NCBI GenBank assembly: GCA_021432605.1
Contig: MU271143.1
Coordinates: 815,277-879,276, forward strand
DNA from: Coniochaeta sp. PMI_546
Lineage: Eukaryota > Ascomycota > Sordariomycetes > Coniochaetales > Coniochaetaceae
DNA: 64,000 bases
Direction: 5' to 3'
Of the stretch, positions 10,420-64,000 are shown piece by piece (the first letter of the stretch is position 1; every line of letters starts with the position of its first letter). Under the pieces are notes generated by a model. That model ran no database searches. It worked only from the letters and a program-made list of their open reading frames with translations, and had not been told where the DNA came from. Position numbers and translations under genes: made by a program.

Positions 10420-11598
10420 CTACACCTTGGTCAAGGTGACATTGTCGATCCACAGGTAACTCCAGGCCGCGCTCGAGACAGGCGCCGCGCAAGACAACGA
10501 GATCTGCACCAGCGCCGCGTCGACAGCGGCGCCCGCAGTCCACGTGTTGGAGAACTGGACCCAGCCCTGCGCGACTGTCACGGCCGCGCTCTGGATGGCC
10601 ACGGCGCCGTTGACGTAGACCGTCGCCGTGGTGGGCCGGTCGGCGGCGCTGGCCGAGATGGTGCGCAGCTGCACGCTGACCCTGTACTGCGCGCCCGGGC
10701 AGACGCGCACGGCCTGCTGCAGGCGGTGGCCCTCGTGCGCGTTCAGGACCCGGTCGATGGCGCTCTGGACGATGGCGGCGCCGTCCGCGGCGGGGTTGGC
10801 CGAGCCCGGGTTGCCGCGGATCAGGCCACTGCCGATGGCCGGGTTGCTCTGCATGATCCAGTCCGAGCTGGTCTCGAAGGAGGGGTTCTTGACGACCTGG
10901 GTTGCCGACGGGCAGCTGACGAACGAGGTGCTGGTGGCGGTTGTCTGGTCGCCGGGGAGGGTGACGGTGGTCGGCACGGTGACGGTCACGACCTCCTCCT
11001 CGCCGGGGAGAGTGACGGTAGTCGGCACGGTGACGGTGGTCTGGTCGCCTGGCAGGGTGACGGTGGTCGGCACGGTCACGGTCACTACCTCCTCCTCCCC
11101 GGGCACGGTGACGGTGCTCGTCGTCTCCTCGCCCGGCAGAGTGACGGTGGTGGGCACCGTCACAGTCGTCTGATCGCCGGGCAGGCTGACGGTGGTCGGT
11201 ACAGTGACAGTCACCACTTCCTCCTCGCCAGGGACGGTGACCGTGGTCGGAACAGTCACATAGGCAGTAGAGGCGAGGCAGCTCGAGATGGTGCTGGTCG
11301 AAGTAGAGCTCGAACTGGTCGAGGTCGAGGTCGACGAGCTGCTGGTCGAGGTCGGCGTCGGGAACTGGCAGGCGCAGGCACTGCTGACCTTGTCGACGCT
11401 GCCGCCACAGTTGGCCAGGTACGACGGGATCACGGACGACTGGCTTGCGGGGACAGATGTCGCTGTGAATGAGGCGCAGAAACTGCTGGCCGAGGCGAGG
11501 CGTGCCGTGTTCTGGATGGCGCGCAGACAGTTGTCCGCGTTGCACACACCGGCGGCAGAGGCCAGGGGCAAGAGGGCGAGTAACGAGAGGACGAGCAT
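10420..11598 (-). CDS. Secreted repeat glycoprotein with CBM-like C-terminus
   Basis: 392 aa, intronless. The start is the ATG at 11598, since it puts a clean signal peptide (about 1-16, ending ASAAG) at the N-terminus; an upstream in-frame extension would bury it. Residues 19-77 hold six cysteines in a short folded unit of a kind seen in fungal wall proteins (CNADNC near 19-24, ACAC near 74-77). A Ser/Thr linker (81-107) leads to a Val/Thr/Pro repeat region (113-222). After that comes a domain (about 229-392) beginning CPSATQVVKNPSFE that resembles carbohydrate-binding jelly-roll modules of the CBM4/9 kind. No catalytic residues or GPI signal are evident. The role is probably binding or structure at the cell wall; the ligand is unknown. 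A TATA box lies 85 bp upstream. Confidence 0.85.
   Translation of the reverse strand: MLVLSLLALLPLASAAGVCNADNCLRAIQNTARLASASSFCASFTATSVPASQSSVIPSYLANCGGSVDKVSSACACQFPTPTSTSSSSTSTSTSSSSTSTSTISSCLASTAYVTVPTTVTVPGEEEVVTVTVPTTVSLPGDQTTVTVPTTVTLPGEETTSTVTVPGEEEVVTVTVPTTVTLPGDQTTVTVPTTVTLPGEEEVVTVTVPTTVTLPGDQTTATSTSFVSCPSATQVVKNPSFETSSDWIMQSNPAIGSGLIRGNPGSANPAADGAAIVQSAIDRVLNAHEGHRLQQAVRVCPGAQYRVSVQLRTISASAADRPTTATVYVNGAVAIQSAAVTVAQGWVQFSNTWTAGAAVDAALVQISLSCAAPVSSAAWSYLWIDNVTLTKV
10933..11262 (-). repeat. Tandem coding repeats, TVTVPTTVTLPG type
   Basis: Codons 113-222 of the secreted glycoprotein repeat the block TVTVPTTVTLPG, each copy followed by either GDQT or GEEEVV-type spacers, about six times. 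The two spacer types alternate, which suggests duplication of a larger double unit. Such Thr/Val/Pro stalks are usual in O-mannosylated wall proteins and vary in length between strains. Confidence 0.85.
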
Positions 11599-12213
11599 AT
11601 TGAACTCTGTACGGGGAGAGAAGCAGTGCAAACTCGGGGAAGGCTCGAGTACGACTAGACTGGAAGAGATTGAGGAATTACATTTTTATATGCTAGATAT
11701 GGGCGAGGAAGAAATTGCTTGTCACCTTCTCGAGTGCTCGGCCATACCGCGCCGCCGGAGGAAAGTGTTGTGTCAATCGCGACCTATTACTGTGTTGGTC
11801 AGGGCCAAGGTCGATACTATCGATTTGCTAGCTTGGATGCGAGGCCTGGCTGGCTTGGCGGCAGTGGAGATACGGAGACAGACAGCACTTGACTCGGGCT
11901 TCTTACCACTGATTGTCGCCGCAGCTTGGTATATATGGGCCTCGCTTAGGGATAGATGATCACCATGGAGTTCGTGCCAGCTAACATAACCCTGCACATC
12001 CGTAAGAGCTGCTTGTGTGTACTTCGGAGTGCAGCTAAAGCAGTCCACCAGCTTAAATGTTGTCAGGCGCTTTGGCAGGCTGTGTCGGACAGGCATGCAG
12101 TAAGTCAACCGAGACTATATTCCATGGCAAACTTGCCAGTGCTACAAACGCTATATACTGGTATCATGAAAGCACCGTACAACCACACCGTGGCCCGCGA
12201 GGTACAGGCCTCG
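11599..12213. other. Spacer with promoter of the secreted glycoprotein
   Basis: This holds the leader and TATA box of the minus-strand glycoprotein gene, then the 3' flank of the four-pass membrane protein gene. I see no further gene. Confidence 0.5.
11683..11690 (-). promoter_or_regulatory. TATA box of the secreted glycoprotein gene
   Basis: TATAAAAA on the minus strand, 85 bp before the ATG at 11598, in a short AT-rich patch. Strong TATA boxes are typical of highly expressed or regulated fungal genes. Confidence 0.55.
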
Positions 12214-28874: not shown

Positions 28875-29869
28875 CTAGAGCATCGGTCCGTTGGCGAGAC
28901 TCATGGCGTTTGCCTGGTTGATCGCCTGAGCCTGGTGGAGCTGCGCGAGGAGCTGAGACGTCTGCATGGTCTGGTTGGTGACCTGCAGCCGCAGCTCGTT
29001 GTTCTCCTGCTTCAGCCGCTTGACCTCTTGGCGCAGAGCCTCGGAGTCGTCGTCATCGCGCTTGCGCCTCTGGCCAGCCCGAGCAGGGGGTGTGCTGCCG
29101 GGGCTGGGCGAGTGGTCGTTGCCGTTGTGCCGCGGACTCGGCGCTTGGGCATCGTCGGGATCCTGGGTGTGCACGCGGCGGAGGTGCTCGTTCAGGTTCT
29201 CCTGCCGGGAGAACGGCTTGCCGGCGAAGCGCTTGCAGGTGGGGTGCGGACACGTGAGGGGCTTCTTCGGACCGCCGTGCTTGCCGTGGACTTCGCGCTC
29301 GTGACGAAGCAGGCCTCCGGAGTACGTAAAACCGGGCAGCTTCTCGCAGCCGTCTTCGAGGCACCTGTACGGTCGCTGGTGCTTGTCCATGTGTTTGCTG
29401 GTGGCAGAGCACGAGTTAGTGCAACGTTCGCTACGACGCGAGGACTTTGGGGAACAAACCTCCACTCGCACTTGCGCGAGAACTGCCGGACGTCCTCTTC
29501 GCATCCGGCGTGGTCGCAGACGAACTTGCCATCGGCATTCTTGACGGCCACGCGGTTCGGCTTCGGCACTGCCTTGACCCGCTGCTGCAGGTGGCTGTCG
29601 CTGGGCGGGGGGGTCGGCCGGATGATGGTCTGTGCCGGCGGGGTGTCGAGATCGAGGTCGTCGTCGGCCGCGTCAAAGTTTGGGACACCGGTGCCGTTGT
29701 AGTTGACGCCATCGGTGAGATCGTTCGCCACGGCTTCGTGGTGGTCGGCGAAGGTGTCGGCATCGGGGCCGGCGACGTGGTGGTCGCCCATGGAAGGGTA
29801 GTTTCCGTCGTGCATGAAGTCTCGCGGCTCGAAGGCCACCTGCGACGAGGTCATCATCGAGGAAGACAT
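28875..29869 (-). CDS. C2H2 zinc-finger transcription factor, three fingers
   Basis: Predicted 310 aa to the TAG, in exons 29869-29460 and 29397-28875, joined by an intron with GTTTGT donor and CACTAAC branch. The N-terminus (1-105) is acidic with a PPAQTIIRPTPPPS segment. Finger 1 spans 118-143 (C118, C123, H139, H143), finger 2 149-174 and finger 3 186-213. A charged Ser/Pro linker leads to a short coiled coil (about 250-277, EALRQEVKRLKQENNELRLQV), likely for dimerisation. The join CEWS-KHMDKHQRPYRC is typical of this ascomycete family. Target genes are unknown. The frame continues for 171 codons beyond the TAG (separate entry). Confidence 0.85.
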
Positions 29870-36897: not shown

Positions 36898-38691
36898 GCC
36901 GGCTTCGTCCGGTGTGTCACCATGGCTTTGAGTAGGAGGTAGCTCTACGCGGCTGAGCGGCGGTTCGGTCCTTGCCGGGTGGCTCTACCAGGAGGTTGGC
37001 GAGCTGAGTTTGGGTTGAACTGCAAGTTGGACTGTGAGCAAGGTGCTTTTCTGGTTTGAGATAGTGAGAGCTCAGTGACATTGTACGATTGGCAACGATT
37101 GGCACCAGGACTGGGGAGTCTCTTCACGACTGCGATGAATTTGGGACGAAATGATACCCTTACTACCTTCTGTATTCTAATGCGTCAATTGTTAATATTG
37201 CCCTTTTAGGAAGAACGCCTCTGCCGCGATTATGATGATGTGTCGTGAGAGAGCACCTGAAGTTCCTGCTCAGTCCCGACTTCATCTCGGTGTTCTCGCA
37301 GATGCCGACCGGCAACGACCTCTACACGTGTAGCTTGTACCATAGTATATAGTAAGCCAAGCGTGGCAGATGATGCGACTGCTGCAAGTCGGCACTCAAG
37401 CACCGGCACAAACAAGCTGAGCCTACGTGTACGGGCACATAATGTGAAGCTTTTTGATGACGTAGCATTTTATGAGGGCACTGTGTAGGTACGTACAGCG
37501 TTGCGGGGTAAGGCCAGCATTTCAGGGCGGGCAGGGGTAGCTCGCGCCACAGGGGTTCCGGAACTTGCGTCACCAGCCACACATCGCCTCCGAGATCGAC
37601 TTCGCATGACGACGGGAGGTGTTGCGTTATTGCGGCTGTTCTGCAAACTTGGATGTGGCACAGTCGACACTGGATCATGTGCTGATCAGCCACTTGACGA
37701 TTGCTGCTAAAGATATTCGCAATGATCGAGCATTAGCCGAGACCAGTAAGGCGTGCCGAAAGACGTGGGGAGGTCGTGCCTGCTATGGAAACATTCTAGC
37801 GCCAATGACCCGCGGATCCACCTTGCAGCAGCCCTACAACGTCACAGCATTACGAGCAGGGTCCAGTATGACGCCAAACCGCCCGGTTGTGCAGGCTCAA
37901 TAACGGGGGGCCGGTGTGTCTTGCCTCAATGCCAGACCTGCCAGACTCTCGGCCGGCAGGGTTGAAGCTTGGATCTTGGCAGTAGCAAGTTCCACCAGTT
38001 GACCTGATTGACAAGAATTGGCCAAGTACACTACACAAGCCCGCCTGCTCGTCTATACACAGTGCACGTAAAGCCATTGCCTCGTGCCCAATCAGGACTG
38101 CCTGCTAGCGTCACCTGTTGAGATTGGACTGGTACACTACCAGGCAGCCAGGTAGAACTGGGGAGGACGACACGTTGAGCCTCCTTGACGCTAGGCTAAC
38201 GAGTGGCTTGAGAGCGTGGTCTCGGACGGACCTCCAACTCGCAGGTACCTGCGGGTCGCCATGGGATCGGGACCGGAGGTGCAGGGCGAAGCTGACCGTT
38301 CCCCGCTAAACATGACGACATGCAGAGTAAGAGGTTGAGCGCCTCCGTCTCGTGACATGCGGGTTTCCTTGGACACGCATGGGGAAGTTGGAACAGTCAA
38401 TGCCTGCTTGGACGGCTCGGCTTGCGTGCTGGCAGCCATGGCAATCACGAATCTCCGCCTATGATGGCATCTGCGCTGAGACTGCCATGACCCAAAACTC
38501 TATTCACTCCACAAGCTGGATGCAGACAGGTATATAACGAGCCAACACCCTCTGTAACGGCCATCATCTCCTCTCTCATCATCATAACACAACCCTACAA
38601 CCCAAAGCAACCTACACTACAACAGCCACAGACACAACTCAAACTACTTCTTACACTCAACTCATACCAATAAGATACACAACCACACAAC
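36898..38691. other. Spacer with promoter of the DPR-motif gene
   Basis: This is 1.8 kb without a supported gene. The last 160 bases hold a TATA box and a CA-rich leader (repeats of ACA/CACA up to the ATG), typical of strongly expressed stress genes. The rest shows only short frames. Confidence 0.5.
38531..38537 (+). promoter_or_regulatory. TATA box of the DPR-motif gene
   Basis: TATATAA at 155 bp before the ATG at 38692, followed by an unstructured C/A-rich leader. Confidence 0.6.
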
Positions 38692-39971
38692 ATGTCGTCT
38701 ATCATCAACAAGGTCAAGGACGCTCTCCACTCCGACCACAGTGACACCACCCACAACACCTCCACCACCCACGGCACCTCATCAGGCGCTCCCGAGGGCA
38801 CATATGGACCCCACAGCAGCCGCGTCGCCAACGCTGCCGACCCCCGCGTAGACTCTGACCGCGACGGCTCTCACAACGCCGGCGCCCGCACAGCGGGCCA
38901 TGGCGAGTACGGCAGTTCGACCGGCGGCTACGTGCACGGCACCGGTCCCACACACGCTTCCCACAGCACCGGCCTAGAAGCCTCCACAGGCTCTGCCGGA
39001 TTCGGCCAGCACGGCACCCGTGAGGGCGAGCACGGCCCTCACAGCTCCCGTCTCGCCAACGCCGCCGACCCTCGCGTCGACTCGGACCGTGACGGCTCGC
39101 ATAACCTCGGCCGCACTGCTGGTCAGGGCGAGAACTACGGCAGCTCCACGGGAGGCTACGTACACGGCACCGGTCCCACGCACGGCTCCCACAGCACCGG
39201 TCTAGCAGCCTCCACCGGCTCCGCCGGCTTCGGCCAGCACACCTCCGGCGCTCGCGAGGGCGAGTACGGACCCCACAGCTCCCGCCTCGCCAACGCCGCC
39301 GACCCGCGCGTCGACTCCGACCGCGACGGCTCCCACAACCTCGGCGGCAACCAGGGCTACAGCACGGGCCACACCACCGGCACCTCGGGCTTCACCACGG
39401 GCTCAAACGTCGGCACCCGCGAGGGCGAGCACGGTCCCCACAGCTCCCGCACGGCCAACGCCCTCGACCCGCGCGTCGACTCCGACCGCGACGGCTCCCA
39501 CAACCTCGGCGGCAGCCAGGGCTACGGCTCCACGACCCACACAGGCTACAACACCGGCGCCGCCGGCTACGGCTCCTCGACCACCGGCAGCGGTCTAGGC
39601 CACGCCGCCCCCGGCCCGGCCCCCAACACCGCCGGCCCCCACAAGAGCGACATGGTCAACAAGCTTGATCCCCGCGTCGACTCCGACCTCGACGGCAGCA
39701 AGACCGTCGGTGGCAACAAGACCTACCAGTAAGTAAGTTGGTCCGCAGTTCAGTTGTGCCCTGAGAAGCCGAACTAACACCTCTGCCCCTCAGATCTGGT
39801 ACCCACGGCAGCGGCATCGGCCACCGGGACCCCACGGACGCCGCACAGGTGCCCCCGTCGGTCCTGCGTCAGACCATCGGTGACCCCGTCGTCGAGCACG
39901 ACGACCACCACCACGGCCGCGACCGCCGCAACAGCTCTGCTACCCACCAGGAGAGGTATAGCGGAGTGTGA
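38692..39971 (+). CDS. Dehydrin-like stress protein with five DPR motifs
   Basis: Predicted 404 aa in two exons, 38692-39728 and 39794-39971 (GTAAGT donor, CCTCAG acceptor). The motif DPRVDSD occurs at residues 50-56, 126-132, 204-210, 259-265 and 326-332. In the first four copies it lies inside the block GPHSSRxANAxDPRVDSDRDGSHN; the last copy is diverged (GPHKSDMVNKLDPRVDSDLDG). Spacers are Gly/Ser/Thr/His-rich. No signal peptide, hydrophobic segment or catalytic motif is present, so the protein should be very hydrophilic and disordered. DPR-motif proteins in Aspergillus fumigatus (DprA-C) are dehydrin-like and protect against osmotic, oxidative or cold stress and during conidial dormancy. 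A similar protective role is inferred here. The family call is fairly firm, the role less so. Confidence 0.85.
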
Positions 39972-45762: not shown

Positions 45763-47071
45763 TGTGGTTGTGTGACGTTGTGTGGTGTTGAAGATGGATG
45801 AACAACCCAGGTTTTAGACACGCGGGACAAGTGAAGCGACGCGCCTCCGGATTTTGTTCTAGAAGTTTACTTGATTAGGCTGTAAGAGGGCAACCAATCA
45901 GACCTAGCATGCAAAGGAATCTACCAGTTGGTCCGCTGCCTCGTTTGAATCCTCCAGGTGTGCTACTAGACTCGGGTACTTGGCAGCTTTGTTCTCAACC
46001 TGACATCCAACACAGACTCCCTAGAAGCAACAAGCAAGTTGAAGACGCCGCTCATGCTCTCCAGATTCACGCGAATGAAACTGACGATATGTGTATCGCT
46101 GCGAGCTTGACTGTAAGAATGACCGGGTAAGTCTTGACTCCAGGTGTTTCCAGAGCGAGGCTTGTGAATAGACACGCACGCTAGCGGTTGTTGACTGTAT
46201 CGCGACACGCGCTGGAGTGTTGGGCAGATGGGACAACGATGGTCGCCCTTGACATGCAGGTCCAACGTGCCTCTCGACCCTAGAAGGGGTTGGTTACACG
46301 ATGTCAATGGATCACTTGGAACTATTCGGACGCCAATTCTCACTGAATGGTCATTATGTCGTGCGTGTCACAAGGTTAGACACCTGCGATCCTTCGCGTC
46401 GTCGTCGCTGATGCTCGTTGAGCGTAAATGTGGGGTGACGTGGGGGAGTGAACCGTCCCGAACCGAGACATGGAGGTCCCTGCCTGCCACCATCTTGTCA
46501 TACCCGTCTTCATCTTGGCAGTGTCGGCAGAGAAATCACAGAGCCGTGTATCTAACGAAGCTCAAGGTCTCTCCCAAGAGGCAGTCGACGTGGAACCTCT
46601 CATGCGGGATTGCGGCAGGTTGATGTGCTCCTACGATGACAGCGGACGACTTGCCAGTGCCAGTCGTTGCATGTACCCGCGGACCAAGCGGTCCTCGCTG
46701 CACGCCAGCCCCATAAACGGGACACGCATGGCGGGCAAAAGTACGACTCTCTAATTCATTGGGAAGCAGGGCGAAGGAGCCGGGATGGCATTGTCGCGAT
46801 TGGATCCCCGCATAGCTAAGCGCGGCAGCGGTCGGTACATGTCGTCGCGGCCCAATCTGGCCTGATGAACTGCATTGCGAGGGCCGTTCATTCTTCCTTC
46901 TCCTTTCCCAGATCCATCAGTTATATCATCGCCGGCCTGAATATGCACTTTTCTCGGACGATGCGCCGCTGCTTCTCGCGCCCCCAGGCGGGTTGCCCGT
47001 CTATGCTTGGGGCTGTCTGACCATGACATTTGCTCACCGCCGCATGTTACGACGCCGGCCTTTCTAGAGGC
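45763..47071. other. Divergent promoter region, no gene seen
   Basis: This is 1.3 kb between the RCC1 start and a plus-strand gene of unknown function. Only short chance frames are present. Confidence 0.5.
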
Positions 47072-49129
47072 ATGCTCGCCGTCCAAAGTTCTACAAGCAT
47101 GTCTCGGCACCGGTCGCAGAGCTTCAGCAAGCAGTCGCAGACGCAGCTGCGGGAGAAGGCAGACCGCCATGGCGGTAGCGGCAGTGCCGGCTCGGCTCAA
47201 GGGGTGGTCTACGAGCCCTTGATATTCCGCAGTCTGCTGTCCGCTCGGTGGCGCTTTTCGTCGACGCAGGGGTTAAAGTCGACGAGCGACGACCCGCGGC
47301 CCAGGGTGCGCTCGCCGAGGGACCGCGGTGACCAAGGGCAAGGGCAGGGACCGACGTTGAGGGAAGCTGCGTCTACGTCTCGGCTTTCGGCAACTACACC
47401 GCCTGAGGTCCCCTTGCGGACATCGTCGAGGAGCCACTTGCGAGCCCGCGAAGGGTCGCCTGACAATGTACTTGTCGGTGAAAAGACAGCCACGGCTTCC
47501 GAACAGAACGGTTCGGGTGCGCGCCGTCGCAAGGAGTTGTTGTCGGCGAAAGCCAAACCGAAGGAGTTGACGATTTCTAGTATTGACTCAGCAAGTTCCC
47601 TGAAAGCAACGTCTAAAGTCGCTAAACAGAACCTTAAACTATCGTCGCCACCGTCAAGACCATCGAGGCGGACTGCATCTGCTGCACCGGCTGGTGCTGG
47701 AAATGAGGATGAACCCAAAAGCGGGATACCTGAACCAGCCGGCGCCACATCAGTAGAGGCCGCGCCCATAACAAGCCTCGACGCTCCCGGAGCAGGGCTG
47801 CCTACCTCGACAGCACGACCGCCAGCAACAGCAAAATCACCGAGCAAAGCACAGGCACGCGTAGAAACGGATCTCACCACCGAGCCAGGCACCTCGGAAC
47901 AGACGGAGGCTTCGGCTGGGCTTGAGTTGTCGGAGACACCGAACAAGACCGCTCCGGCGGACAGTCCAGGAGGAGCAGAGCCTTCGTCGAGGGAGCCTCC
48001 AGCAACGACGCAAGGTCCAGCAACGCAAGAACTAGCAACGCAAGAACCAGCAACGCAAGAACCAGCAACGCAAGAACCAGCAACGCAAGAACCAGCAACG
48101 CAAGCTCCAGCGATGCAAGCTCCAGTGACGCAAGATCCAGCGACGCAAGAACCAGCAACGCAAGCTCTAGCAACGACGCCCTCTCCAGCGGCGCAGGATC
48201 CAGCAACGACGCAAGTTCCAGCAAAAGAAGTGGCACCGGCCAGCGAAGAGTCCCGTGTCACGGCTGAAAAGCCAGCAGAACCGGACTGCGCGCGACAGAT
48301 GGTCAACTTTATATCACCAGACTGTCCAGTAGAACCAAAGCTCGCAACGGGACCAGCCTCTCCAACAGCCGCGAAGCCCCGCCCTCCGTCCGCGCCTGCC
48401 ACGACCATCAGATTCCTCGGCAAGAAGCCCAAGGGCGCCAAGTGCGTGCGATTCGGGGTGGAGACCACGCGCAGGATCGAAGTCCACCCCAGCCGGCACC
48501 TGCGCCCGCTGAGCTCCGCGAACTTCGGCACGCGGAGCGGACTGTCGTACCTCGACTCGACCGTCGACCCCAAGAAGGCCGCGGACAAGGCCGTCCTCGA
48601 GTTCCCCGAGGGCAAGCTCGGGACCAAGCTGCGCCGCCGTCGCGAGAGACAGGCGGCCGTGGCGCGGTACTGGCTGCGCACGGAGGAGGAGGAGGCTGCC
48701 GAGCGGGCCAGGGCCACGGTGCGGGCGGAGGAAGAGGCGGCCAGGTATAGGCAGGAGCCGTCTAGTCCGGGCTCGGAGGGTACGAGTCCAGTGATGGTTC
48801 TGACGGTCCAGATCGATCTTACGTGGTCAAAAAGGACCGGTGATACGGCGAAGGACGACCCTGTGGGGTTGACTGCACCGGACGCCGCGCAGGTGGTGCC
48901 GCAAACAGCAGAAACTGAGGACGTGGCATGCGCAGGGATCAGGCAAGAAGCGACACCGACAGAATCGGGTGTCCCATCGAAGGCCAAGCAGGAGCTGGCA
49001 AGGATCAAGGAGGAGCTGGCGCGGAATCAGGACGACTGCCAGAAAGTCGCCGAGGCGCCGGTGCCAAGGGACCACGAACGCGAGGGCAGGAAACGGAAGC
49101 CAAAGATGAGGCCGCTTGTCTTTCCATAA
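47072..49129 (+). CDS. Unrecognised repeat-rich protein
   Basis: I do not recognise this protein. Starting at the ATG at 47072 it has 685 residues (a second ATG at 47099 is equally possible). Residues 1-330 are Ser/Thr/Arg/Ala-rich and disordered. About 310-390 hold a tandem repeat of ATQEP pentapeptides. An ordered-looking, charged part follows (about 450-570), with FLGKKPKGAKCVRFGVETTRR, a block around LSYLDSTVDPKKAADKAVLEFPEGK, then a strongly helical Arg/Glu segment (RRRRERQAAVARYWLRTEEEEAAERARATVR). The tail is acidic to basic and ends KPKMRPLVFP. The KCVRFG-type segment and charged helix hint at a cytoskeletal or nuclear scaffold role, but that is speculation. The opposite strand is also open for about 600 codons, which the repeats and GC-rich codons explain. 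Confidence 0.7.
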   Translation: MLAVQSSTSMSRHRSQSFSKQSQTQLREKADRHGGSGSAGSAQGVVYEPLIFRSLLSARWRFSSTQGLKSTSDDPRPRVRSPRDRGDQGQGQGPTLREAASTSRLSATTPPEVPLRTSSRSHLRAREGSPDNVLVGEKTATASEQNGSGARRRKELLSAKAKPKELTISSIDSASSLKATSKVAKQNLKLSSPPSRPSRRTASAAPAGAGNEDEPKSGIPEPAGATSVEAAPITSLDAPGAGLPTSTARPPATAKSPSKAQARVETDLTTEPGTSEQTEASAGLELSETPNKTAPADSPGGAEPSSREPPATTQGPATQELATQEPATQEPATQEPATQEPATQAPAMQAPVTQDPATQEPATQALATTPSPAAQDPATTQVPAKEVAPASEESRVTAEKPAEPDCARQMVNFISPDCPVEPKLATGPASPTAAKPRPPSAPATTIRFLGKKPKGAKCVRFGVETTRRIEVHPSRHLRPLSSANFGTRSGLSYLDSTVDPKKAADKAVLEFPEGKLGTKLRRRRERQAAVARYWLRTEEEEAAERARATVRAEEEAARYRQEPSSPGSEGTSPVMVLTVQIDLTWSKRTGDTAKDDPVGLTAPDAAQVVPQTAETEDVACAGIRQEATPTESGVPSKAKQELARIKEELARNQDDCQKVAEAPVPRDHEREGRKRKPKMRPLVFP
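48011..48222 (+). repeat. 15-bp coding minisatellite (ATQEP repeats)
   Basis: A run of about 14 units of GCAACGCAAGAACCA and variants. The first seven are almost identical, the later ones diverge (QAPAM, QDPAT, QALAT). The length is a multiple of three per unit, so copy-number change keeps the frame. Confidence 0.9.
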
Positions 49130-53008: not shown

Positions 53009-54658
53009 GGGGTGATCGTGGATGGATGCAAGGCGCGGCGAGGTGTATGAGTCTTGGCTCGGGGAGCACCCGGTGTTTAGGAGTTTTTGGTCTGTTCGAG
53101 ATACCACGGTTTACGAGCTGCGTTGCTCGCTGAAGTCTCAGATGGGAATAATACAGGAGGTGCTCGTACGGAGCAGGTCATTAGAAATGTCTTGTGATGC
53201 CCTGTATCTACATTGTTAAGTTTTCATGCTCGGGTGTACGTGCATGTTACCAGGGTTCTCAAATGTCTACACTATTTTGCAGTGGCAGCATTGTCAGCAC
53301 TTGCTACAGCATGCCCAGCTACCTGATTCTATCAAGACAAAAAGAAAAGAGTTCATCAGATACCATAACGCATGTTGGTCCTCAATGTGGCTTTGCCACT
53401 CAGAGCTTGACTCTATGTTGTGTTTATCATCACCTGAACTCTCAGCCCCCGGATGCCACAGTCAAACGTCCGACAACACCGCCAATCCAGCGCGAGAGCG
53501 TGGACAGTTGGACTTCCGACGAAGCCTAGAGTTTCGAGCGTCCAGCTCCCGCGCCAGGCCAGCAGCCGTCACCAGAAAACCCCCAGAGCAACAGTTGCCT
53601 CGTTGAAGCCCCCCTCGCACCAAGAATAAGCCCCATCGAGTAACCAAGGCGGCCGAGACCGCCGAGGCAATCGCATCCCTATAACATCTCGACTAAAAGC
53701 TCTCAAGCCAGCGTGGGCGCCAGACGCCTGACCATCCACGGCCACCCGCCACCGGCACCTCTCCGCAACCCCATCCGCAAGACACCAGCGCCACAACGGC
53801 CTCCCCGAGCGGAAACAGAGCGCGGACTCATATCTTCGTCCATGTGGTCTCTGACCGCCCGGAAGGACCGCAATGGGCTGGCTGAGACGTCCCACGAGCA
53901 GAGCAGAGGAGAAAGGGCCGACTTGACGACGGGCAGGGTAGAGTGGACAGACGAGAGACTGGCCGGCAGAGATCAGCCGCAGCTTTGCTTCTATGGCGGC
54001 GCGTTTCCGCGTTTCCTTCCCGAAGAGGGAAAGAATGTCCGGGGACTTTCTCCCGAAGCCAGATTGGGGAAAGACTCGGGTGGAATCTTCGTGTGTGAGC
54101 TTCGATAGCGATCTGTTGGGCGAGGGGGAGCTTGGAGGAGAAGAGAGGAAGAAGAAGAGGCAGGAGCAGAGCGGTTGGAGTTTTTATGGTAGAGATTTTG
54201 AAAGGTGGGGCTCGAAGCGGGAGTGGGTTTTTGCTCGTTAGCTCCGGCCAATCAGGGCTCGGCGTCAAGGATGCGTTCACGTCAGGCTCGATTAAGCGCG
54301 AAGCTCGACGGCCAAAAGTTTGGCTGAGGGAGTGTGCATAGCCTCGTCTTTGTTGGCTGAACTTACACGTGTACACTCAGAGAGGAGTAGAGGTATCACG
54401 GCTGTCATACTGTTTGCATGCTCGCGGAATCCATATTCAGTTGAGGACTATATCCCACGTCGACTTGACTCGGTGTCACACGGTGAAAGCTGCTGGCCAA
54501 CCACCCTCGTCGACAACTGGCAGCCGAAATAGACCCGTTCGCACCTGCCGCCCTCGAATCAGAACCATCTGGAAGGAGCAGCCGCCCTCCCGCCCTGGTA
54601 CCACTCTAGACTCACCTGCCATAGTAGCACTCAGTCAACCCACACCCCGAACCCTGCT
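53009..54658. other. Spacer, no convincing gene
   Basis: About 1.65 kb. The plus strand near 54120-54240 is purine-rich (the minus strand C/T-rich), as in leaders and promoters. Minus-strand frames at 53828-54376 and 53569-53895 have no recognisable content. The last part is the promoter of the Rae1 gene. Confidence 0.5.
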
Positions 54659-57040: not shown

Positions 57041-59261
57041 GGTTACGGATGGTTTCCGAATATTGGATCAGGAGATGGCACGCTGTCGAGGACGATTGGT
57101 GGACTGATGCTGAGACGACACACTAGGTATCGAGGACGGTGTCGGAGGTGATGTTGAGATGACACACTATCAGAGACGGTTGCTGGCGGTGCTGCTACGA
57201 TGAAAGACGAGATCAGGAACAGGAAGTCGGTCGAGGGGGAGCTACGGTAGATAAGGGGGAAGTACCGGAGCCAAGCATTCCAGAATGTGTTGAGGAGGAG
57301 TCACTTAAAGTTTGGTACCCGTCCCGCCGAACAGTCCCAGAAGTCCCTAGCCGGGCTGACCCCTCCCCTTGTTCGAGATACCGATCTTACGACAGTAGTG
57401 TAGTTAGTGTACAGTCACACATGGAGCTGCTCCCGGACAACCACGACGCACAGCATGTTGCCGATGACCGGCCAATGGGCTTTCGTCCATTTGTCCAGAC
57501 ATCTTCCATGTTCCTCATCTTTGTGTACCTCAATCTATCCGATGTTTAAAGCTCGAGTGTACATATCCCTGTCAGCCATTCCCACTCCCACTTCCGCACC
57601 GAATCGTTCCTTCCTCATTCCTCATCAACTTCTCAGGTTGTCTGATCCTCGACTGACCGGGGGTGTCGCAGCTTCCCCGACATTTTGAGTGGGGCAATGG
57701 TTATCCGTTGAGAAGCTCGGGCCAAGGTAGCGGTCAAGTCGAGCAGGGGGGTGAAGCTCGCCCGGGACGGGGCCGCGTGGTTGCTTTTGGTTTAGCGAGG
57801 GTCAACAGAATCCGACCCCTGTCGCGCATCACTCAACTGCTTCCAGTGCTCGTCCCACGTTTTCAGGCTGGAATGGGCCTTACTGGCATGGTGTTGTCTA
57901 CCGAGTCCGACAGCTAGACTGTCAGTCAAGGTCTCCGTGCTCGATATATACCGGACTAGCATAGCTGATGGGCGGTCCCTACGAGTCCTGGATATAAAGG
58001 TATGTTTTCACGTCAGTAGTGTTGCAACTTGCAAGCAACCGTCGGCATGGCACCGCCCTTCACTTACGCCTCGTCGCCCTCCGTGAGAGTCATTGAAGCG
58101 CCTGAAGTCGACATCTTCTTACTGTTTGTTTCCTTGCTATGCCGACTCGTCTCCATTGTGATTGATACCTGATCGCCGAGATTCCTGCTCCATATATCCC
58201 TAGCCGGGACATTGAGCCGCTCTGAGAACACATGAGAAGAACAGCTTGAAAACGACTGTCCCAAGGGATCACCAGCGGCAGTTTGGCTTGGCTTGGTGTG
58301 TCGCCTGCATCCAGTGACTCGAACTGTATGATTTCTCTGCTTCTCAAACGAGCTGTTGGCCGATAGCCTTGCGAGAGCACAATTGTGTTCAGCTTTCTCA
58401 CCCACCCTCTTGCTGCCATTTCGAGGGCGGCTATCTAGGCCCCGGAGCGTCAAGGTGGGCTCCCCGATAGCCCCGCGAATGGGAAGCCTCCAGTCAAGAC
58501 CAGAACAGGCAAGTAGATGCCGTGCAGGTGATGCAAAAGCGGCGAATAGATAGAGCTTACCACTCGAGAGAGGGCCGCGCTGGGAACGCAGGCCGTGCAT
58601 TTCCCCCTCCGGCCTAGCGGCCGCAAAGCGATTCCTAGGTCGCTCAGATGATTCGTTGGGCATCGAGAGGGCGGACTGCTAGGCTTACTAATTTCGCGAT
58701 ACTGTATATATCCTTTCTAGGCAGTCGAGACAGACGGAGGGTTGTCGATACGCGTCACAATCGGACAGTCATAACACGCAACTGCGCCTGCGAGTCAAGG
58801 CACCAATGGGAATGATCACGGTCGCTCAGCATGCAGCCGGACACTCCAGACCCGGCCATCTGATGGGCCAGTGTTTGCTTTCAAGTTGTTGCTTCTGGAG
58901 TGCCGGTCTCGCTCTGGAACTGCACTTATGTGTGACTTTGTAGTATTGTAAAATCATCTTCGCAAAGCCCTGACGCCGTATATAAATTCGGGTCGATGCC
59001 GTCACGCCGTGGAACCGCTTTCGATCCAGAAGTTTCACGATATTCAATTATCGCCTTGCCTCTGCCTCTGCGGTTGCCAGTCTCACAATCCCTGCGGAAT
59101 CGGATACAGCCTTGGCCTCTAGACAAGCGTAACATTAGCGCAGTAAACTCTCCGCCAGTGCACCCAAGTCTTGTCGTGCTCCTCTGGCCGGGTTGCATTC
59201 CAGAGTGTCGACCAGTGCAAGGCAAGTCGACGGCCACGCTCTAGAACCTTAGCTCAGAAGG
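57041..59261. other. Long spacer, no convincing gene
   Basis: About 2.2 kb. The longest frame (minus strand, 58064-58663, 199 codons) has an even, random-looking composition, and I find no splice partner. No repeats or RNA genes were recognised. Confidence 0.5.
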
Positions 59262-59957
59262 ATGGCCGCTCTTGACCAAAGGGACAACTCCCAGACGCCA
59301 CTCCCCCCTCCAAACCGAAGGGCACGGGGACCTCTTACGCCGAGGTATGTGCCCCCGATCGAGCTCTCCGATCCTGCGCCTATCTCCTCTGATTCCCCGC
59401 CCTATGATTCTATCATGTCTTATAGCATCGTGGGTGATTCATGCTACGGAGCACAGCCTTTCCCTGACGAAGATGAATCCAACTCCGAACCTTGCCCAGG
59501 CTGGGTTGAGGAGACCGAACAATATGGCTACGTAGACAGGCCACGTCGTGTCTCGCCTCACCGACTGCCGCACCACCTGACTCATGAATCCCTCTCGACC
59601 CTTCCTGCTCTTATGAAGGAGGAAATGAGCTTTGGTACACCGGAGGCGAGCGCTGTCTGCCAGAGTCACATGCAGACGCATCCCGACACGACGGGACATG
59701 ACGGGCCTAACCAAACTCACGCTTACGGGTTCTCTAGCAGGCTTGAGCCCTCGAATATGAACGGTTCGCGGGGCCGCCAGCCTCGTCTCAGAGGACTAAT
59801 CTATAGTGAGCGCGACCTCGCAGATGAGGACTCGGATTCGTCGGGCGATGACTCGGGCATGTCGACATACGCTTCGAGCCTAGAAGAGGGACATCCGCTC
59901 CTCCAGTTCAAAGAAGGAATCATCCGCGACATCATGCAGGAGTTTCGTACCACGTAG
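59262..59957 (+). CDS. C2H2-like zinc-finger gene, upstream part (ends at in-frame TAG)
   Basis: 231 codons from the ATG at 59262 to a TAG at 59955-59957. The region is acidic, Ser/Pro-rich and mostly disordered. It ends with a block common in a large ascomycete family of C2H2-like proteins: an acidic Ser/Asp patch (DEDSDSSGDDSGMSTYASS) and then a helix (HPLLQFKEGIIRDIMQEF) just before the stop. In relatives as I remember them, this helix continues into the zinc-finger part on the same polypeptide. The next part of that family lies directly downstream in the same frame. As it stands, this part alone would encode a protein without DNA-binding residues. Confidence 0.7.
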   Translation: MAALDQRDNSQTPLPPPNRRARGPLTPRYVPPIELSDPAPISSDSPPYDSIMSYSIVGDSCYGAQPFPDEDESNSEPCPGWVEETEQYGYVDRPRRVSPHRLPHHLTHESLSTLPALMKEEMSFGTPEASAVCQSHMQTHPDTTGHDGPNQTHAYGFSSRLEPSNMNGSRGRQPRLRGLIYSERDLADEDSDSSGDDSGMSTYASSLEEGHPLLQFKEGIIRDIMQEFRTT

Positions 59958-59963
59958 AACGGC

Positions 59964-61115
59964 ATGGGCAAGAATGAGGGGAGCTGCACAGCCAGCAGCT
60001 CACATAATGTTCCTGTAGCCGACACCACAGCCACCGGCGGCGGTGGGAATACCGAGAAGCGGAAACTGGTTCTACGGAGCAACGACAAGGAGGAGCAGTC
60101 ACAATCAGTCGAGGGCGCTCAAAAAAGGCCTCGAACGACACCGGGCGCCCTGATCTTTGCTTGCCCGTTCTACAAGAAAGACCCGCTCCGCCATCGGAAA
60201 TGCTACGGGTACAAGCTATCCAGGATCCGAGACGTAAAGCAACATATCAGCAGAGCCCATAGGCTACCGGTATACTGCTCTTCCTGTATGGAGACGTTTG
60301 CCACCGAGTCGCTGCGGGACGAACATAGCAGGCCTCGGTCCTGCCCTACCCGACCACTGGTCGTGTTCGACGGCGTTACAGAAGAACAGAAGCAGCAGCT
60401 CGCCAGGAGGATCTCATCCCGCGTGTGCGAGGAAGAACAGTGGTACATCGTTTTTGATATTCTCTTCCCAGGTCACTCACATCCGTTGTCCCCCTATATA
60501 GATCAGCAACTGTCGGAGGAAATGCATGTCTTTCGCGACTTTATGGTCAGCGAAGGTCCGCGCATGATGCGCAGACATCTGGAGCCACATGTCAGCTTGG
60601 TAGACTCCGATATGGAGACAGACCTGGAGACTCTGCTCGAACAGATAGTAGGCCAGTGTCTACAGCGCCTCTTTGAGCGGTGCAGGAGGGACTCGACACC
60701 CACGTCCTCTGCCCATGCTTCGAGCAGTGGTGCGCCTCCTTCCAGAAGGTGGTCGTCGGACACCCAGCTGGAACAGCGTGAAGCGACGGAGGGTCCCATC
60801 ATACTGACAGCTGATCAACAACTCGCAAGTCCGGGTTCATCGAGCGGTAGTATTCCTTTGCCGTCGATAGGTTTCCCAGCTCAACACGACTCGTGCGAAT
60901 ACTTTGCACAGCAGTCAGTCTCTGCAGCCCTGCCGGTCCAGTCTGCAGGGTACGCTCCCAACTATGTGGAAGCAGAGCCTTCGCAAGCATGCCCGCAGGC
61001 GATGGAGCCGATGGAAGAGGACCTCGAGTTCCACGCTTGGTATCCTCAGTCAGCCAGCCTGTCAGAGGAAGACTTCCTCTACCAGTGGGATACTCTTGAC
61101 ACATCATCATCTTGA
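59964..61115 (+). CDS. C2H2-like zinc-finger gene, downstream part (same frame after TAG)
   Basis: After the TAG the frame stays open for 385 codons; its first ATG (59964) comes two codons later and gives 383 aa. A basic, nuclear-signal-like stretch (EGAQKRPR) precedes two zinc-finger-like units: CPFYKKDPLRHRKC with H94 and H99, and CSSC with H121. The order CPFYKKDP...DVKQHISRAH is characteristic of a large, uncharacterised ascomycete family. A coiled, acidic-aromatic segment (VTEEQKQQLARRI, EEQWYIVFDILFPG) follows, then a helical part and a Ser/Glu-rich tail. With the upstream part it makes a normal-looking family member of about 615 residues. It could be translated separately, by readthrough, or from an edited message. 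Confidence 0.75.
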   Translation: MGKNEGSCTASSSHNVPVADTTATGGGGNTEKRKLVLRSNDKEEQSQSVEGAQKRPRTTPGALIFACPFYKKDPLRHRKCYGYKLSRIRDVKQHISRAHRLPVYCSSCMETFATESLRDEHSRPRSCPTRPLVVFDGVTEEQKQQLARRISSRVCEEEQWYIVFDILFPGHSHPLSPYIDQQLSEEMHVFRDFMVSEGPRMMRRHLEPHVSLVDSDMETDLETLLEQIVGQCLQRLFERCRRDSTPTSSAHASSSGAPPSRRWSSDTQLEQREATEGPIILTADQQLASPGSSSGSIPLPSIGFPAQHDSCEYFAQQSVSAALPVQSAGYAPNYVEAEPSQACPQAMEPMEEDLEFHAWYPQSASLSEEDFLYQWDTLDTSSS

Positions 61116-61787
61116 GAGCGCGTGCGCCGAGGCGGATGGGCGACCTATGAGCGGGTGCGCCCTGCCACCTGTGAACATCCTCTTGTCCTGGTGATAGCAC
61201 TCTGAGGACTTCCGGTCGTACTTCAACAGTGTTCTGGGACACTATGTTGCTCGCGATGTTGAGTTGACGACGGAATTAGCCGTCTTCTCATTCCAAGAAA
61301 CTCGACGTCACCGCGTTCGAAGAAGCGATTTGGTTGGCTTCTGCGATGGGTTGAACCACAAGGTAAGAAGAGGTGTGGTTGTTTTCCTGCTACTTCCGCT
61401 TCACCTCGCCCAAGTCTTTCGAACCCTAGATAGAGGAACGTACCTCGGCCACTTTAACAACCTAACTTTACATTCACACCCTTAACGTTCACACAGACAA
61501 ATTGCACTTTCGTCGTGTTTATCCACAACCGCGACAAACCAACTTTCTCTCTTCTGCCTAACTCACTCATCATCATCACCGCAGAGCTGAGCTTAGCCCT
61601 CCTCTACCAGATACCTGACCGCGGGATTATCCTCAGCCGTTGTCAACTGCGCACTGCTTCATCTTCCAACACAACCCATCGAATCCACCAGAAGATCTAT
61701 CCTGAGTACTTCGGAAGTCGTGCGTGCCATCAATGAACATTACCTTATCAAAATCAATACTAATGGAAGAGACGCGTCAGGTTATAG
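61116..61787. other. Spacer, no gene seen
   Basis: This lies between the zinc-finger gene and the coiled-coil gene. The last 300 bases are C/T-rich on the plus strand, as in fungal leaders. Confidence 0.5.
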
Positions 61788-62756
61788 ATGGGCGAGATCA
61801 AGAAATCACCGGGCCAAAGCCAGGCGCCCAAGGCATCCGACATCCCGGTGACAAAACCCATCCAGCGGGACCAGCTTGAACGAGACCCAGCTCTGGCGAC
61901 GACACTCGGAAATTCGGTCCAGGGACCCTTTGTACCGCGCGACCGCTCTGCAGCGCCTCAGACAGTCAGAAACCCATTCACAAGCCCGTTCCCGCCGCCT
62001 CGAGGTCCAAGCCCCTTCGCACCACGCGGCAAGGCCCCGGTCCCCGTCACATCTACCAACCTGATCTCGAACCCTTTCGCGCAAGAGCGTGGTCCAAACC
62101 TGTCCGAGCCGCGCGACAAGGCCCCGATACCCGTGGCACCTACTAAACCGATCTCGAATCCTTTCGCGCAGGAGCGTCGCGACAAAACTCCAGCTCCTAA
62201 GGGACCAAGCAACATGACCTCGTACCCCTTCGGGCAGAAGCATGTCCCAAGTCTCTCCGAGCCGGGCAAAAAATCTCCAGCTCCCAAAGAACCTCCCAAC
62301 CGCGTCGAAAAGTCTGATGCTCAGCGCGACAAGATTGCAGCTCTGGTAAAGGACAAGCAAGCACTGCAGAAGAAGCTGGACAAGTACGAGACCACCCTCG
62401 ACACCCAGAACGAGAGATTCGCGACCTTGAGGGACCAGCAGAATCAACAAACCCAACGTGTCAAAGACCTTGAAGATGCGCTGACGGCTGCCAACGCAGC
62501 GCGAGAGATGGCCTGGGAAGAACGCTGCCGAACGTCCGAGGAGCTTGACTGGGCTCGCGGTGAGCTTGCGCGGGACAAGGACGTCATTGAAGAATTGAGA
62601 AGCAGAGCCCTCAGAGCAGAGACTGGCAGCGCAGAACTGCAAGCAAGGGTGAAGGACCTTGAGAATCAACTCAAGGAGAGGAAGGACGAGGCACGCGAGG
62701 CGGCGGATACTTTGGAATACGCCATGTCGTTGCTCAAGGAAATGGCTAAAGAGTGA
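61788..62756 (+). CDS. Unrecognised protein with proline-rich repeats and a coiled coil
   Basis: 322 aa, intronless. Residues 1-175 are Pro/Lys/Ser-rich and include imperfect repeats of about 25 residues built on (I/T)SNPFAQER, LSEPRDKAP and SPFPPPRGPSPF-like segments. Residues 178-320 form a long coiled coil (KIAALVKDKQALQKKLDKYETTLDTQ and on, with regular Leu/Ala heptads), rich in Arg, Glu and Gln. There is no membrane segment or enzyme motif. The layout of a disordered, repeat-bearing head and coiled-coil tail suggests a scaffold or tether, but I cannot name the family. Confidence 0.72.
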   Translation: MGEIKKSPGQSQAPKASDIPVTKPIQRDQLERDPALATTLGNSVQGPFVPRDRSAAPQTVRNPFTSPFPPPRGPSPFAPRGKAPVPVTSTNLISNPFAQERGPNLSEPRDKAPIPVAPTKPISNPFAQERRDKTPAPKGPSNMTSYPFGQKHVPSLSEPGKKSPAPKEPPNRVEKSDAQRDKIAALVKDKQALQKKLDKYETTLDTQNERFATLRDQQNQQTQRVKDLEDALTAANAAREMAWEERCRTSEELDWARGELARDKDVIEELRSRALRAETGSAELQARVKDLENQLKERKDEAREAADTLEYAMSLLKEMAKE

Positions 62757-63738
62757 CTTGCCACGCTCGAAGCGCGACTCTTATAGCATTTGGGAATGTC
62801 GAGGAGGCTGCCTATTTGCCGGGATCGGTTATGTCGGGCCCCTGAAAGGTCTCGGAAAGGAATGGGATGAGCTCATGCCAAAGATCGAAAGCATGGATAT
62901 TGTACTTGCTCAACGCCTGGCATCTGGAAGCACGTGAAGGTCTGCCATTGGTCCATGCTGGTTTGTGGATGTTTGCTCCGCGGGTTAGATGCCTCTTTAG
63001 CTTGCGAAGACAACACGGAAAGAGACAAGCAAGGCAAGCCGTTTATGTAGTTAATGCGGCGCGCTTCACTACGCTCCCCTCATTCCTCTTGCTCCTTTAC
63101 TGTATTGGACGATGGACTACCCTTACCAGCACATATATATTCTCATCTGTGAACGTCGTGACAATCACTATCAGCATCTGCTGGCACAGCTCAGGAGGTC
63201 ATGTTCATCCGCATGTATCTCGGACACATCCCCTGTCGTGATAGAGACGACGTCCTCCCTTTGTGAGGTACTATGAAGGCTCCGGTGTTTGATACTGTGC
63301 CAGACTTGACAGCATGTTGCAAATTGGTGAGAGCGTGAACAGTCACCCAGTATGCTGGGCGAAGCCATCACGAGACTCTAGTATATATGCTTCTATTACT
63401 GGCACGTTCAGGAAATCAACGTGTCTATTTCCAGAAGTAATATGGTCGTCCGGAAAGTGAATGTTCTGCAGGCAGACTTCATGTAATCAAAGATCTCGGA
63501 CGCTCAAATACCACATCCCCTCCCCCCTTCCCCAAGATTCACTACGGACTTGGGAAGAATATAAGCCAACCGCTTCCTTTCCTAAGTTACTGAGCATCAC
63601 CACCTCGCAATTCATACGGTTCTCTCACAACCTTGTTTTTCCAATTCACTCACTGTACTTTCTCTCTGTTTTCATAAACATCTAAACAAATAACCACGGC
63701 TGTCTTCTAGACTTCAAGCGCATCTCCTGCCTAACTTT
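62757..63738. other. Spacer, no gene seen
   Basis: This lies between two coiled-coil genes on the same strand. The final 250 bases carry a TATAAG (63560-63565) and a C/T-rich leader before the next ATG. Confidence 0.5.
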
Positions 63739-64000
63739 ATGAACATCAATACCACCCGCGACCAAGTCCGACGAGACGAGATGGAAGCTCTTAAGAAAGA
63801 GAATCAGCTCTTGAAGAAGCTGAATGAGGCATATGAGTGGAAAATTGAAGCGTTGGAGAAGAACTTGCGAGAAGGTACCTCTAGCACGGGTCAGCCTCTC
63901 AGGAACATCGATGGTTGTGCCGACGACGAATCCGACTGGGACGCGAACTTCATCAGGGGAATTCAGAAGCAAGTGCAAGACCAGCAACAGCAGCTCGCCG
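63739..64000 (+). CDS. Coiled-coil protein, N-terminal part (cut by window end)
   Basis: An open frame from the ATG at 63739 to the window edge, 87 codons so far. It starts MNINTTRDQVRRDEMEALKKENQ and continues as a charged coiled coil with Leu heptads (LLKKLNEAYEWKIEALEKNL), then an acidic linker and a Gln-rich stretch. A TATA-like element and a pyrimidine-rich leader upstream support a real start. The family cannot be named from this part. It may be related to the coiled-coil gene 1 kb upstream. Confidence 0.7.
   Translation, partial: MNINTTRDQVRRDEMEALKKENQLLKKLNEAYEWKIEALEKNLREGTSSTGQPLRNIDGCADDESDWDANFIRGIQKQVQDQQQQLA

What the first reader, a model, noticed from the sequence alone, without database searches (positions are those of the whole stretch)
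59955..59957. Single in-frame TAG splits a C2H2-like gene: candidate mRNA editing or readthrough site
Seen: 231 open codons, one TAG, then 385 open codons in the same frame; together they make the expected layout of one ascomycete zinc-finger family. Known: Sordariomycetes carry out sexual-stage A-to-I mRNA editing that favours UAG (A after U) and turns premature stops into UGG Trp codons in Fusarium and Neurospora. Inference: this TAG, read as Trp in perithecia, would give a full-length protein only during sexual development. Alternatives are readthrough, a strain-specific nonsense change, two separate short proteins, or a sequence error.
Basis: partly seen in the sequence, partly recalled or inferred. 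Interest (0 to 1): 0.75.

Follow-up and report, generated by a model that had tools for sequence, protein, structure and literature searches.

The report
Fungal zinc-finger gene with internal TAG
A fungal zinc-finger gene is cut by a single internal stop codon that no recognisable intron removes; it may be repaired in the messenger RNA, as in a known Fusarium gene, but a plain broken copy is almost as likely.

Summary
A + strand frame runs from ATG 59262 to TGA 61113 with one stop, TAG 59955-59957: 231 open codons before, 385 after. Over each half its frame scores best of six. The downstream half has two intact zinc-ligand clusters. The 231 codons probably include an 81-nt in-phase intron, 59345-59425.

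Introns are the ordinary cause of such a break: two control breaks in this window have canonical in-phase introns (+8.7 and +5.7 bits). This TAG has none (best -6.0 bits up to 130 nt, -2.2 up to 200 nt). Two separate genes are unlikely, and the context is not the known fungal readthrough context.

That leaves A-to-I correction (0.38) against a nonsense allele or sequence error (0.36). Editing-specific signals are unremarkable: 3 of 6 preferred neighbours; hairpin chance equalled by 69-155 of 300 random TAGs, by fold length. The downstream half has no relative in viral or prokaryote contigs; fungal genomes could not be searched and the species is unknown. CHE1 of Fusarium graminearum is a published gene of the same design. 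A second zinc-finger-like gene here, TAG 28877-28875, has a better editing context.

The parts
59262..59344 (+). Proposed exon 1, starting at an ATG with A at -3 and G at +4
   Evidence: start context; previous in-frame stop at 59250
59345..59425 (+).
   Evidence: +10.0 bits with the published Fusarium splice table, against +5.7 to +10.4 for six introns that I picked from the 24 clusters; only donor above 1 bit in 59262-59957
59426..59954 (+). Upstream half of the main exon; the upstream half is Ser/Pro/acidic-rich with no Pfam match
59955..59957 (+). Internal TAG; A at 59956 is the base that editing would change
59947..60018 (+). Best in-phase candidate intron of up to 130 nt over the TAG (GTACCA...CTCAC...TTCCTGTAG); judged too weak
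   Evidence: -6.0 bits; 306 of 730 ordinary exon positions have an equal or better chance candidate; 59947-60030 scored the same
59958..61112 (+). Downstream half, 385 codons, with an ATG at 59964 two codons after the TAG
60162..60260 (+). First zinc-ligand cluster, C-x12-C-x13-H-x4-H
   Evidence: pattern match
60276..60344 (+). Second zinc-ligand cluster, C-x2-C-x12-H-x5-C
   Evidence: pattern match
61113..61115 (+). Terminal stop TGA

Best explanation
One + strand gene (ATG 59262; probable intron 59345-59425; TGA 61113) encodes a zinc-finger-type protein whose frame holds a single TAG between a Ser/Pro/acidic-rich N-terminal part (204 codons after removal of the probable intron) and the 385-codon zinc-finger part. 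Shown by sequence: the frame, the stop, intact zinc ligands, and no recognisable intron over the stop. Inferred: unedited mRNA gives only the N-terminal protein, which has no zinc fingers. In some cells or stages the Tad2-Tad3 tRNA deaminase, with or without a cofactor such as Ame1, changes the A of UAG to inosine, so that the codon is read as Trp and a full protein of 590 residues is made. The stop would then act as an on/off switch for the factor, as in CHE1 of Fusarium graminearum.
For: Frame 0 is best of six over each half and over both 100-codon flanks of the TAG, and wins all 11 windows that run across it. The break is a single TAG, with no other in-frame stop from 59262 to 61112. Best in-phase intron over it: -6.0 bits up to 130 nt, -2.2 up to 200 nt, while control breaks at 44923 and 16127 score +8.7 and +5.7. 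U at -1, G at +1 and A at +3 are preferred; PMC9600606 (section 6) names the group preferred only at -1, +1 and +3 as holding more sites than many other groups. CHE1 has the same order of parts: unstructured N-terminus, TAG, C2H2 fingers (PMC11169179). Of the 4 breaks with coding signal on both sides, the other one that no intron explains is also a TAG, in a zinc-finger-like gene.
Against: G at -2, A at +2 and C at +4 are depleted bases. Of the four positions not fixed by UAG only one is preferred; 409 of 902 TAGs in the window are as poor or poorer. In the 61-nt fold used in PMC9600606 the A lies in an interior loop; its sampled hairpin chance is 0.40, equalled by 102 of 300 random TAGs, and falls to 0.04 and 0.00 in 401- and 601-nt folds. 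No RNA data, no relative and no proof that the species is a Sordariomycete. Codon usage unlike conserved genes fits a fast-evolving or decaying gene as well.
Confidence: 0.38

Rival explanations
1. Nonsense allele, young pseudogene or sequence error: the gene is whole in relatives and simply broken (or misread) at one base here.
For: One disabling change in a frame of 616 sense codons is what a recent loss or an assembly error looks like. Codon usage of both halves is unlike that of the conserved genes, as in a dispensable lineage-specific gene. Editing-specific context and hairpin are unremarkable.
Against: Both zinc-ligand clusters are intact and there is no second in-frame stop. Repeat-induced mutation is not indicated: TpA/ApT 0.67 and 0.74 around the two halves, 0.65 in the rest of the window (the usual thresholds are recalled). 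TAG is one of three possible stops.
Confidence: 0.36
2. A weak, non-consensus intron removes the TAG (59947-60018, or 59806-59991), constitutively or as an alternative.
For: 59947-60018 is in phase, 72 nt long, with CTCAC 16 nt before TTCCTGTAG. Two control breaks in this window with the same pattern do have in-phase introns. One Fusarium gene, FgBUD14, combines editing with alternative splicing of an intron that holds its site (PMC11156358).
Against: Donor GTACCA has C at +5, the base at 1% in 2022 Fusarium introns (PMC5677156). Its score of -6.0 is reached by chance at 306 of 730 ordinary positions, and the -2.2 of 59806-59991 at 208 of 730. PUK1 and CHE1 orthologues are published cases where annotation invented such introns.
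Confidence: 0.1
3. Two proteins from one locus: a short N-terminal protein ending at the TAG, and a zinc-finger protein started at ATG 59964.
For: ATG 59964 has G at -3 and G at +4. Some CHE1 orthologues are annotated this way (PMC11169179, section 7).
Against: Only six bases separate the stop from the ATG; same frame, and the coding signal does not drop across the junction. In CHE1 no downstream Met is conserved.
Confidence: 0.11
4. Translational readthrough of the UAG.
For: In frame, with a long open extension.
Against: The fungal readthrough context described is UGA CU, and replacing UGA by UAG lowers it (PMC4207609, passages). Here it is UAG AAC.
Confidence: 0.05

Closest known systems
CHE1 of Fusarium graminearum (PMC11169179; abstract and sections 6, 7, 11 read)
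   Same: C2H2 zinc-finger factor with a premature TAG between an unstructured N-terminal part and the fingers; annotation programs stop there, start after it or place an intron over it.
   Different: CHE1 is 145 + 164 residues with three fingers; its site is edited specifically in hyphae and predicted in a hairpin loop in several Fusarium species. Here: 204 + 385 codons, two ligand clusters of unusual spacing, no RNA evidence, hairpin unremarkable. No sequence comparison with CHE1 was possible.
PUK1-like premature-stop-correction genes (PMC4817773, passages; PMC11156358, parts 1 and 2 of 3)
   Same: In-frame TAG in an otherwise open gene of a filamentous fungus, where gene finders would be tempted to place an intron.
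   Different: In PUK1 editing is demonstrated (90% of perithecial transcripts) and orthologues in two species carry one of its two stops; nothing of that could be tested here.
UGA CU readthrough genes of fungi (PMC4207609, passages)
   Same: A longer protein made across a stop codon.
   Different: Stop type and the following bases do not match.

Membership tests
Premature-stop-correction (A-to-I) genes | In-frame UAG inside one open reading frame | tested here: met
Premature-stop-correction (A-to-I) genes | Stop not removed by splicing | tested here: inconclusive
   No consensus intron over the TAG, but computed only, no cDNA
Premature-stop-correction (A-to-I) genes | Preferred bases at -2 to +4 | tested here: inconclusive
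   3 of 6 preferred, of which -1 U and +1 G come with any UAG
Premature-stop-correction (A-to-I) genes | Edited A in a stable hairpin loop | tested here: inconclusive
   Loop in the best folds of 21, 31, 41, 101 and 201 nt, not in the 61-nt one; sampled chance 0.04 and 0.00 in 401 and 601 nt
Premature-stop-correction (A-to-I) genes | A in DNA, G in RNA | not testable with these tools
   No reads available
Premature-stop-correction (A-to-I) genes | Species with mRNA editing (so far Sordariomycetes and one Pezizomycete) | not testable with these tools
   No genome held; searches of solved structures did not name a lineage
CHE1 orthologues | Orthology and conserved stop | not testable with these tools
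   CHE1 sequence not held; no fungal collection
C2H2 zinc-finger proteins (Pfam) | Match to a Pfam zinc-finger model at its cut-off | tested here: not met
   Two sub-threshold matches for the downstream half; best Phage_zn_bind_3, 14.7 bits against 27
Zinc-finger proteins (general) | Paired Cys and His/Cys ligands | tested here: met
   C-x12-C-x13-H-x4-H and C-x2-C-x12-H-x5-C; zinc binding itself not tested
UGA CU readthrough genes | UGA followed by CU | tested here: not met
   UAG AAC (criterion)

The most novel reading that the evidence does not exclude
Both zinc-finger-like genes with a TAG break in this 64-kb window (59955-59957 on +, 28877-28875 on -) are switched by A-to-I editing of an internal or terminal UAG, so that in this fungus stop editing is a recurring way of controlling zinc-finger transcription factors.
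Probability: 0.1. Interest if true: 0.6.

Novelty: new member of a known kind. Interest (0 to 1): 0.4.

Why it matters
If edited, it would be a further example of a transcription factor whose DNA-binding half exists only where its mRNA is edited, and would show that the CHE1 design recurs. It gives a cheap, sharp test at one base. If it is a broken allele, it is a useful warning that an in-frame TAG without an intron is not by itself evidence of editing.

Tried and rejected
Relatives. The downstream half was scanned against viral contigs (137 residues of it: 5 pattern matches, none confirmed) and bacterial and archaeal genomes (8 pattern matches, none confirmed). Two degenerate patterns in viral contigs found nothing; one in genome contigs gave 13 loci. 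tblastn against these 13 and the window: best E 0.47 for the downstream half and 3.1 for the upstream half among the loci, and no paralogue in the window. The upstream half was not scanned against any collection. Solved structures: no match to the downstream half up to E 10.

Lineage. Conserved proteins against solved structures did not resolve it; a filamentous ascomycete is my reading of gene style and intron shape, not a result.

AlphaFold2 on 60126-60635 without an alignment: mean pLDDT 37.6, not used.

Intron model of my own: 24 clusters of introns that the coding signal demands, of which 5 scored high enough for training; too few, so the published Fusarium table was used. The six reference introns are those 5 and one more that I picked for its signals; choice within clusters used splice and branch scores, so their range is partly circular, and 18 of 24 clusters were left out. 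The null (2647 positions) may include a wrongly framed ORF (10423-11600), so (730 positions, four ORFs) is the one relied on. Codon counts used some wrong frames and were replaced.

Repeat-induced mutation as cause of the stop: indices not different from the rest of the window.

Full report
What is there. The TAG at 59955-59957 lies in a + strand frame that is open from ATG 59262 to TGA 61113 apart from this one codon: 231 codons before, 385 after. The previous in-frame stop is at 59250. The ATG has A at -3 and G at +4. Inside the upstream part, 59345-59425 scores +10.0 bits as an intron (GTATGT, CTGAT, TATAG; 81 nt, in phase, stop-free). Six introns that I picked from 24 clusters demanded by coding signal score +5.7 to +10.4; that choice used splice signals too, so the comparison is partly circular. 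The mature upstream half is thus probably 204 codons, not 231.

Is it one gene? A codon table from 13 reading frames or parts of them (5,569 codons, this gene not among them) puts frame 0 first of six for each half, with nearly equal means (-0.21 and -0.23). In 40-codon windows inside the frame it is outright best in 18 of 29, tied in 2 and beaten in 9; all 11 windows starting from 59562 to 60162, across the TAG, are won by it. GC at third positions is 0.61 and 0.62. Against this, both means lie below those of the training genes (+0.17 to +0.51), so only the ranking of frames speaks for coding, and the GC periodicity of the upstream half is not significant on its own (67 of 1000 shuffles; that of the downstream half is, 0 of 1000). 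The downstream half holds two ligand clusters, C-x12-C-x13-H-x4-H and C-x2-C-x12-H-x5-C, though no Pfam model reaches its cut-off. Two separate nuclear genes with six bases between stop and ATG, in the same frame, are very unlikely (inference).

How unusual is it? Over both strands 22 stops have at least 100 open codons on each side in frame. In 4 of the 22 the frame is the best of six on both flanks: TGA 44923, TAA 16127, TAG 28877 and TAG 59955. At 44923 both sides match RCC1 repeats above the cut-off, and continue each other along Pfam WD40_RLD (positions 1-114, below that model's cut-off, and 117-363). At 16127 one side has no Pfam match and the other matches ARM_ARMC5 at 37.4 bits, below its cut-off of 79.9; a kinase domain lies just upstream, so that this is one gene is less certain. 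Both have in-phase introns with canonical signals, +8.7 and +5.7 bits (for the second, a 54-nt and an 81-nt version score alike). This is the ordinary cause of such a break and a fair control.

Does an intron explain this TAG? Scored with the donor, branch and acceptor frequencies of 2022 Fusarium introns (PMC5677156, passages), the best in-phase candidate of up to 130 nt is 59947-60018 at -6.0 bits; its donor GTACCA has C at +5, a 1% base. Among 730 ordinary exon positions 306 have a chance candidate as good. Allowing 200 nt, 59806-59991 reaches -2.2 bits, equalled at 208 of 730 positions. With any phase and up to 530 nt the best is +0.6 (all). A consensus intron is therefore absent; a non-consensus one is not excluded.

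Does it look like an A-to-I site? In Fusarium the preferred bases are C/U at -2, U at -1, A/G at +1, G at +2, A/G at +3 and +4 (PMC9600606, section 6). Here they are G, U, G, A, A, C: 3 of 6. Two of these come with any UAG; of the four free positions one is preferred, and 409 of 902 TAGs in the window do no better. The same section names the group preferred only at -1, +1 and +3 as holding more sites than many others, so the context is permissive, not favourable. Over 62% of edited sites lie in predicted hairpin loops in 61-nt folds (section 7); here the best such fold puts the A in an interior loop, while 312 of 902 TAGs are in hairpins. Best folds of 21, 31, 41, 101 and 201 nt do place it in a hairpin loop, but sampled chances at 21, 31, 41, 61 and 101 nt (0.83, 0.94, 0.90, 0.40, 0.53) are equalled by 155, 107, 98, 102 and 69 of 300 random TAGs, and 401- and 601-nt folds give 0.04 and 0.00. 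These tests neither support nor exclude editing.

Precedents. CHE1 of F. graminearum has a TAG between an unstructured N-terminal part and C2H2 fingers; the site is hyphal-specific, edited at 9-10%, more with peroxide, and automated annotations of orthologues stop there, start after it or invent an intron (PMC11169179, abstract and sections 6, 7, 11). PUK1 and 69 further genes have stops of this kind, with introns wrongly placed over them (PMC4817773, passages). Editing is known in several Sordariomycetes and in the Pezizomycete Pyronema, and was not found in Aspergillus nidulans or Botrytis cinerea (PMC11156358, part 1). Single sites are often not conserved between species (PMC5381528, passages). 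A described fungal readthrough context is UGA CU, and UAG lowers it (PMC4207609, passages).

Weighing. Editing and a nonsense allele or sequence error stay nearly level. TAG rather than TAA or TGA, the otherwise clean frame, the CHE1 design and the second TAG break in a zinc-finger-like gene lean to editing. The unremarkable context and fold, the unlike codon usage, and the absence of relatives, RNA and lineage lean the other way. I give editing 0.38, broken or misread 0.36, internal start 0.11, weak intron 0.10, readthrough 0.05; these are judgements, not computed.

The second site. On the minus strand a frame that I read by eye as a C2H2 zinc-finger gene (no Pfam family at E 0.01 or better for 28878-29672) ends in TAG 28877-28875 and continues open for 171 codons. 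The 120 codons before the stop score +0.29 in this frame; the extension scores -0.17, best of six overall, though not in each window. Its context is C, U, G, G, A, C, 5 of 6 preferred, and the A is in a hairpin loop with chance 0.97, 1.00, 1.00 and 0.82 in 21- to 61-nt folds, 0.34 at 101 nt and 0.22 at 401 nt. The best in-phase intron over it scores -8.0, and no donor above 1 bit and no CTRAY lies in 29100-28360. It may simply be the normal end of that gene; by sequence it is a better editing candidate than the one I was given.

Noticed in passing
window 28875-29672 (-), TAG 28877-28875: A zinc-finger-like gene (read by eye; no Pfam match) ends in a TAG with 5 of 6 preferred editing neighbours and a stable local hairpin, followed by 171 in-frame open codons whose frame is best of six overall; a candidate stop-loss or premature-stop site.
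   Followed up: partly
window 59345-59425 (+): Consensus in-phase 81-nt intron without stops inside the upstream ORF; retention would add 27 residues without breaking the frame.
   Followed up: partly
window 58000-64000: GC is at the low end here (0.554, 0.546 and 0.521 per 2 kb, the last the lowest of 32; some other stretches are similar), and GC3 is 0.61, 0.62 and 0.64 for the two halves and the ORF at 61788, against 0.79 for the one conserved ORF measured, at 23540; possibly a block of fast-evolving or accessory genes.
   Followed up: no
window 61788-62756 (+): 322-aa ORF with repeated NPFAQER-like motifs and a coiled-coil-like second half (by eye); only sub-threshold Pfam matches.
   Followed up: no
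window 53613-54126 (-): RNase MRP RNA, 514 nt against a 266-position model, so with large insertions.
   Followed up: no
window 38674-39732 (+): Protein of repeated GPHSSR-ANA-DPRVDSDRDGSHNLG-like units.
   Followed up: no
window 10420-11685 (-) and 47027-49129 (+): Proteins with tandem VTVPTTVTLPGEEE-like and ATQEP repeats.
   Followed up: no
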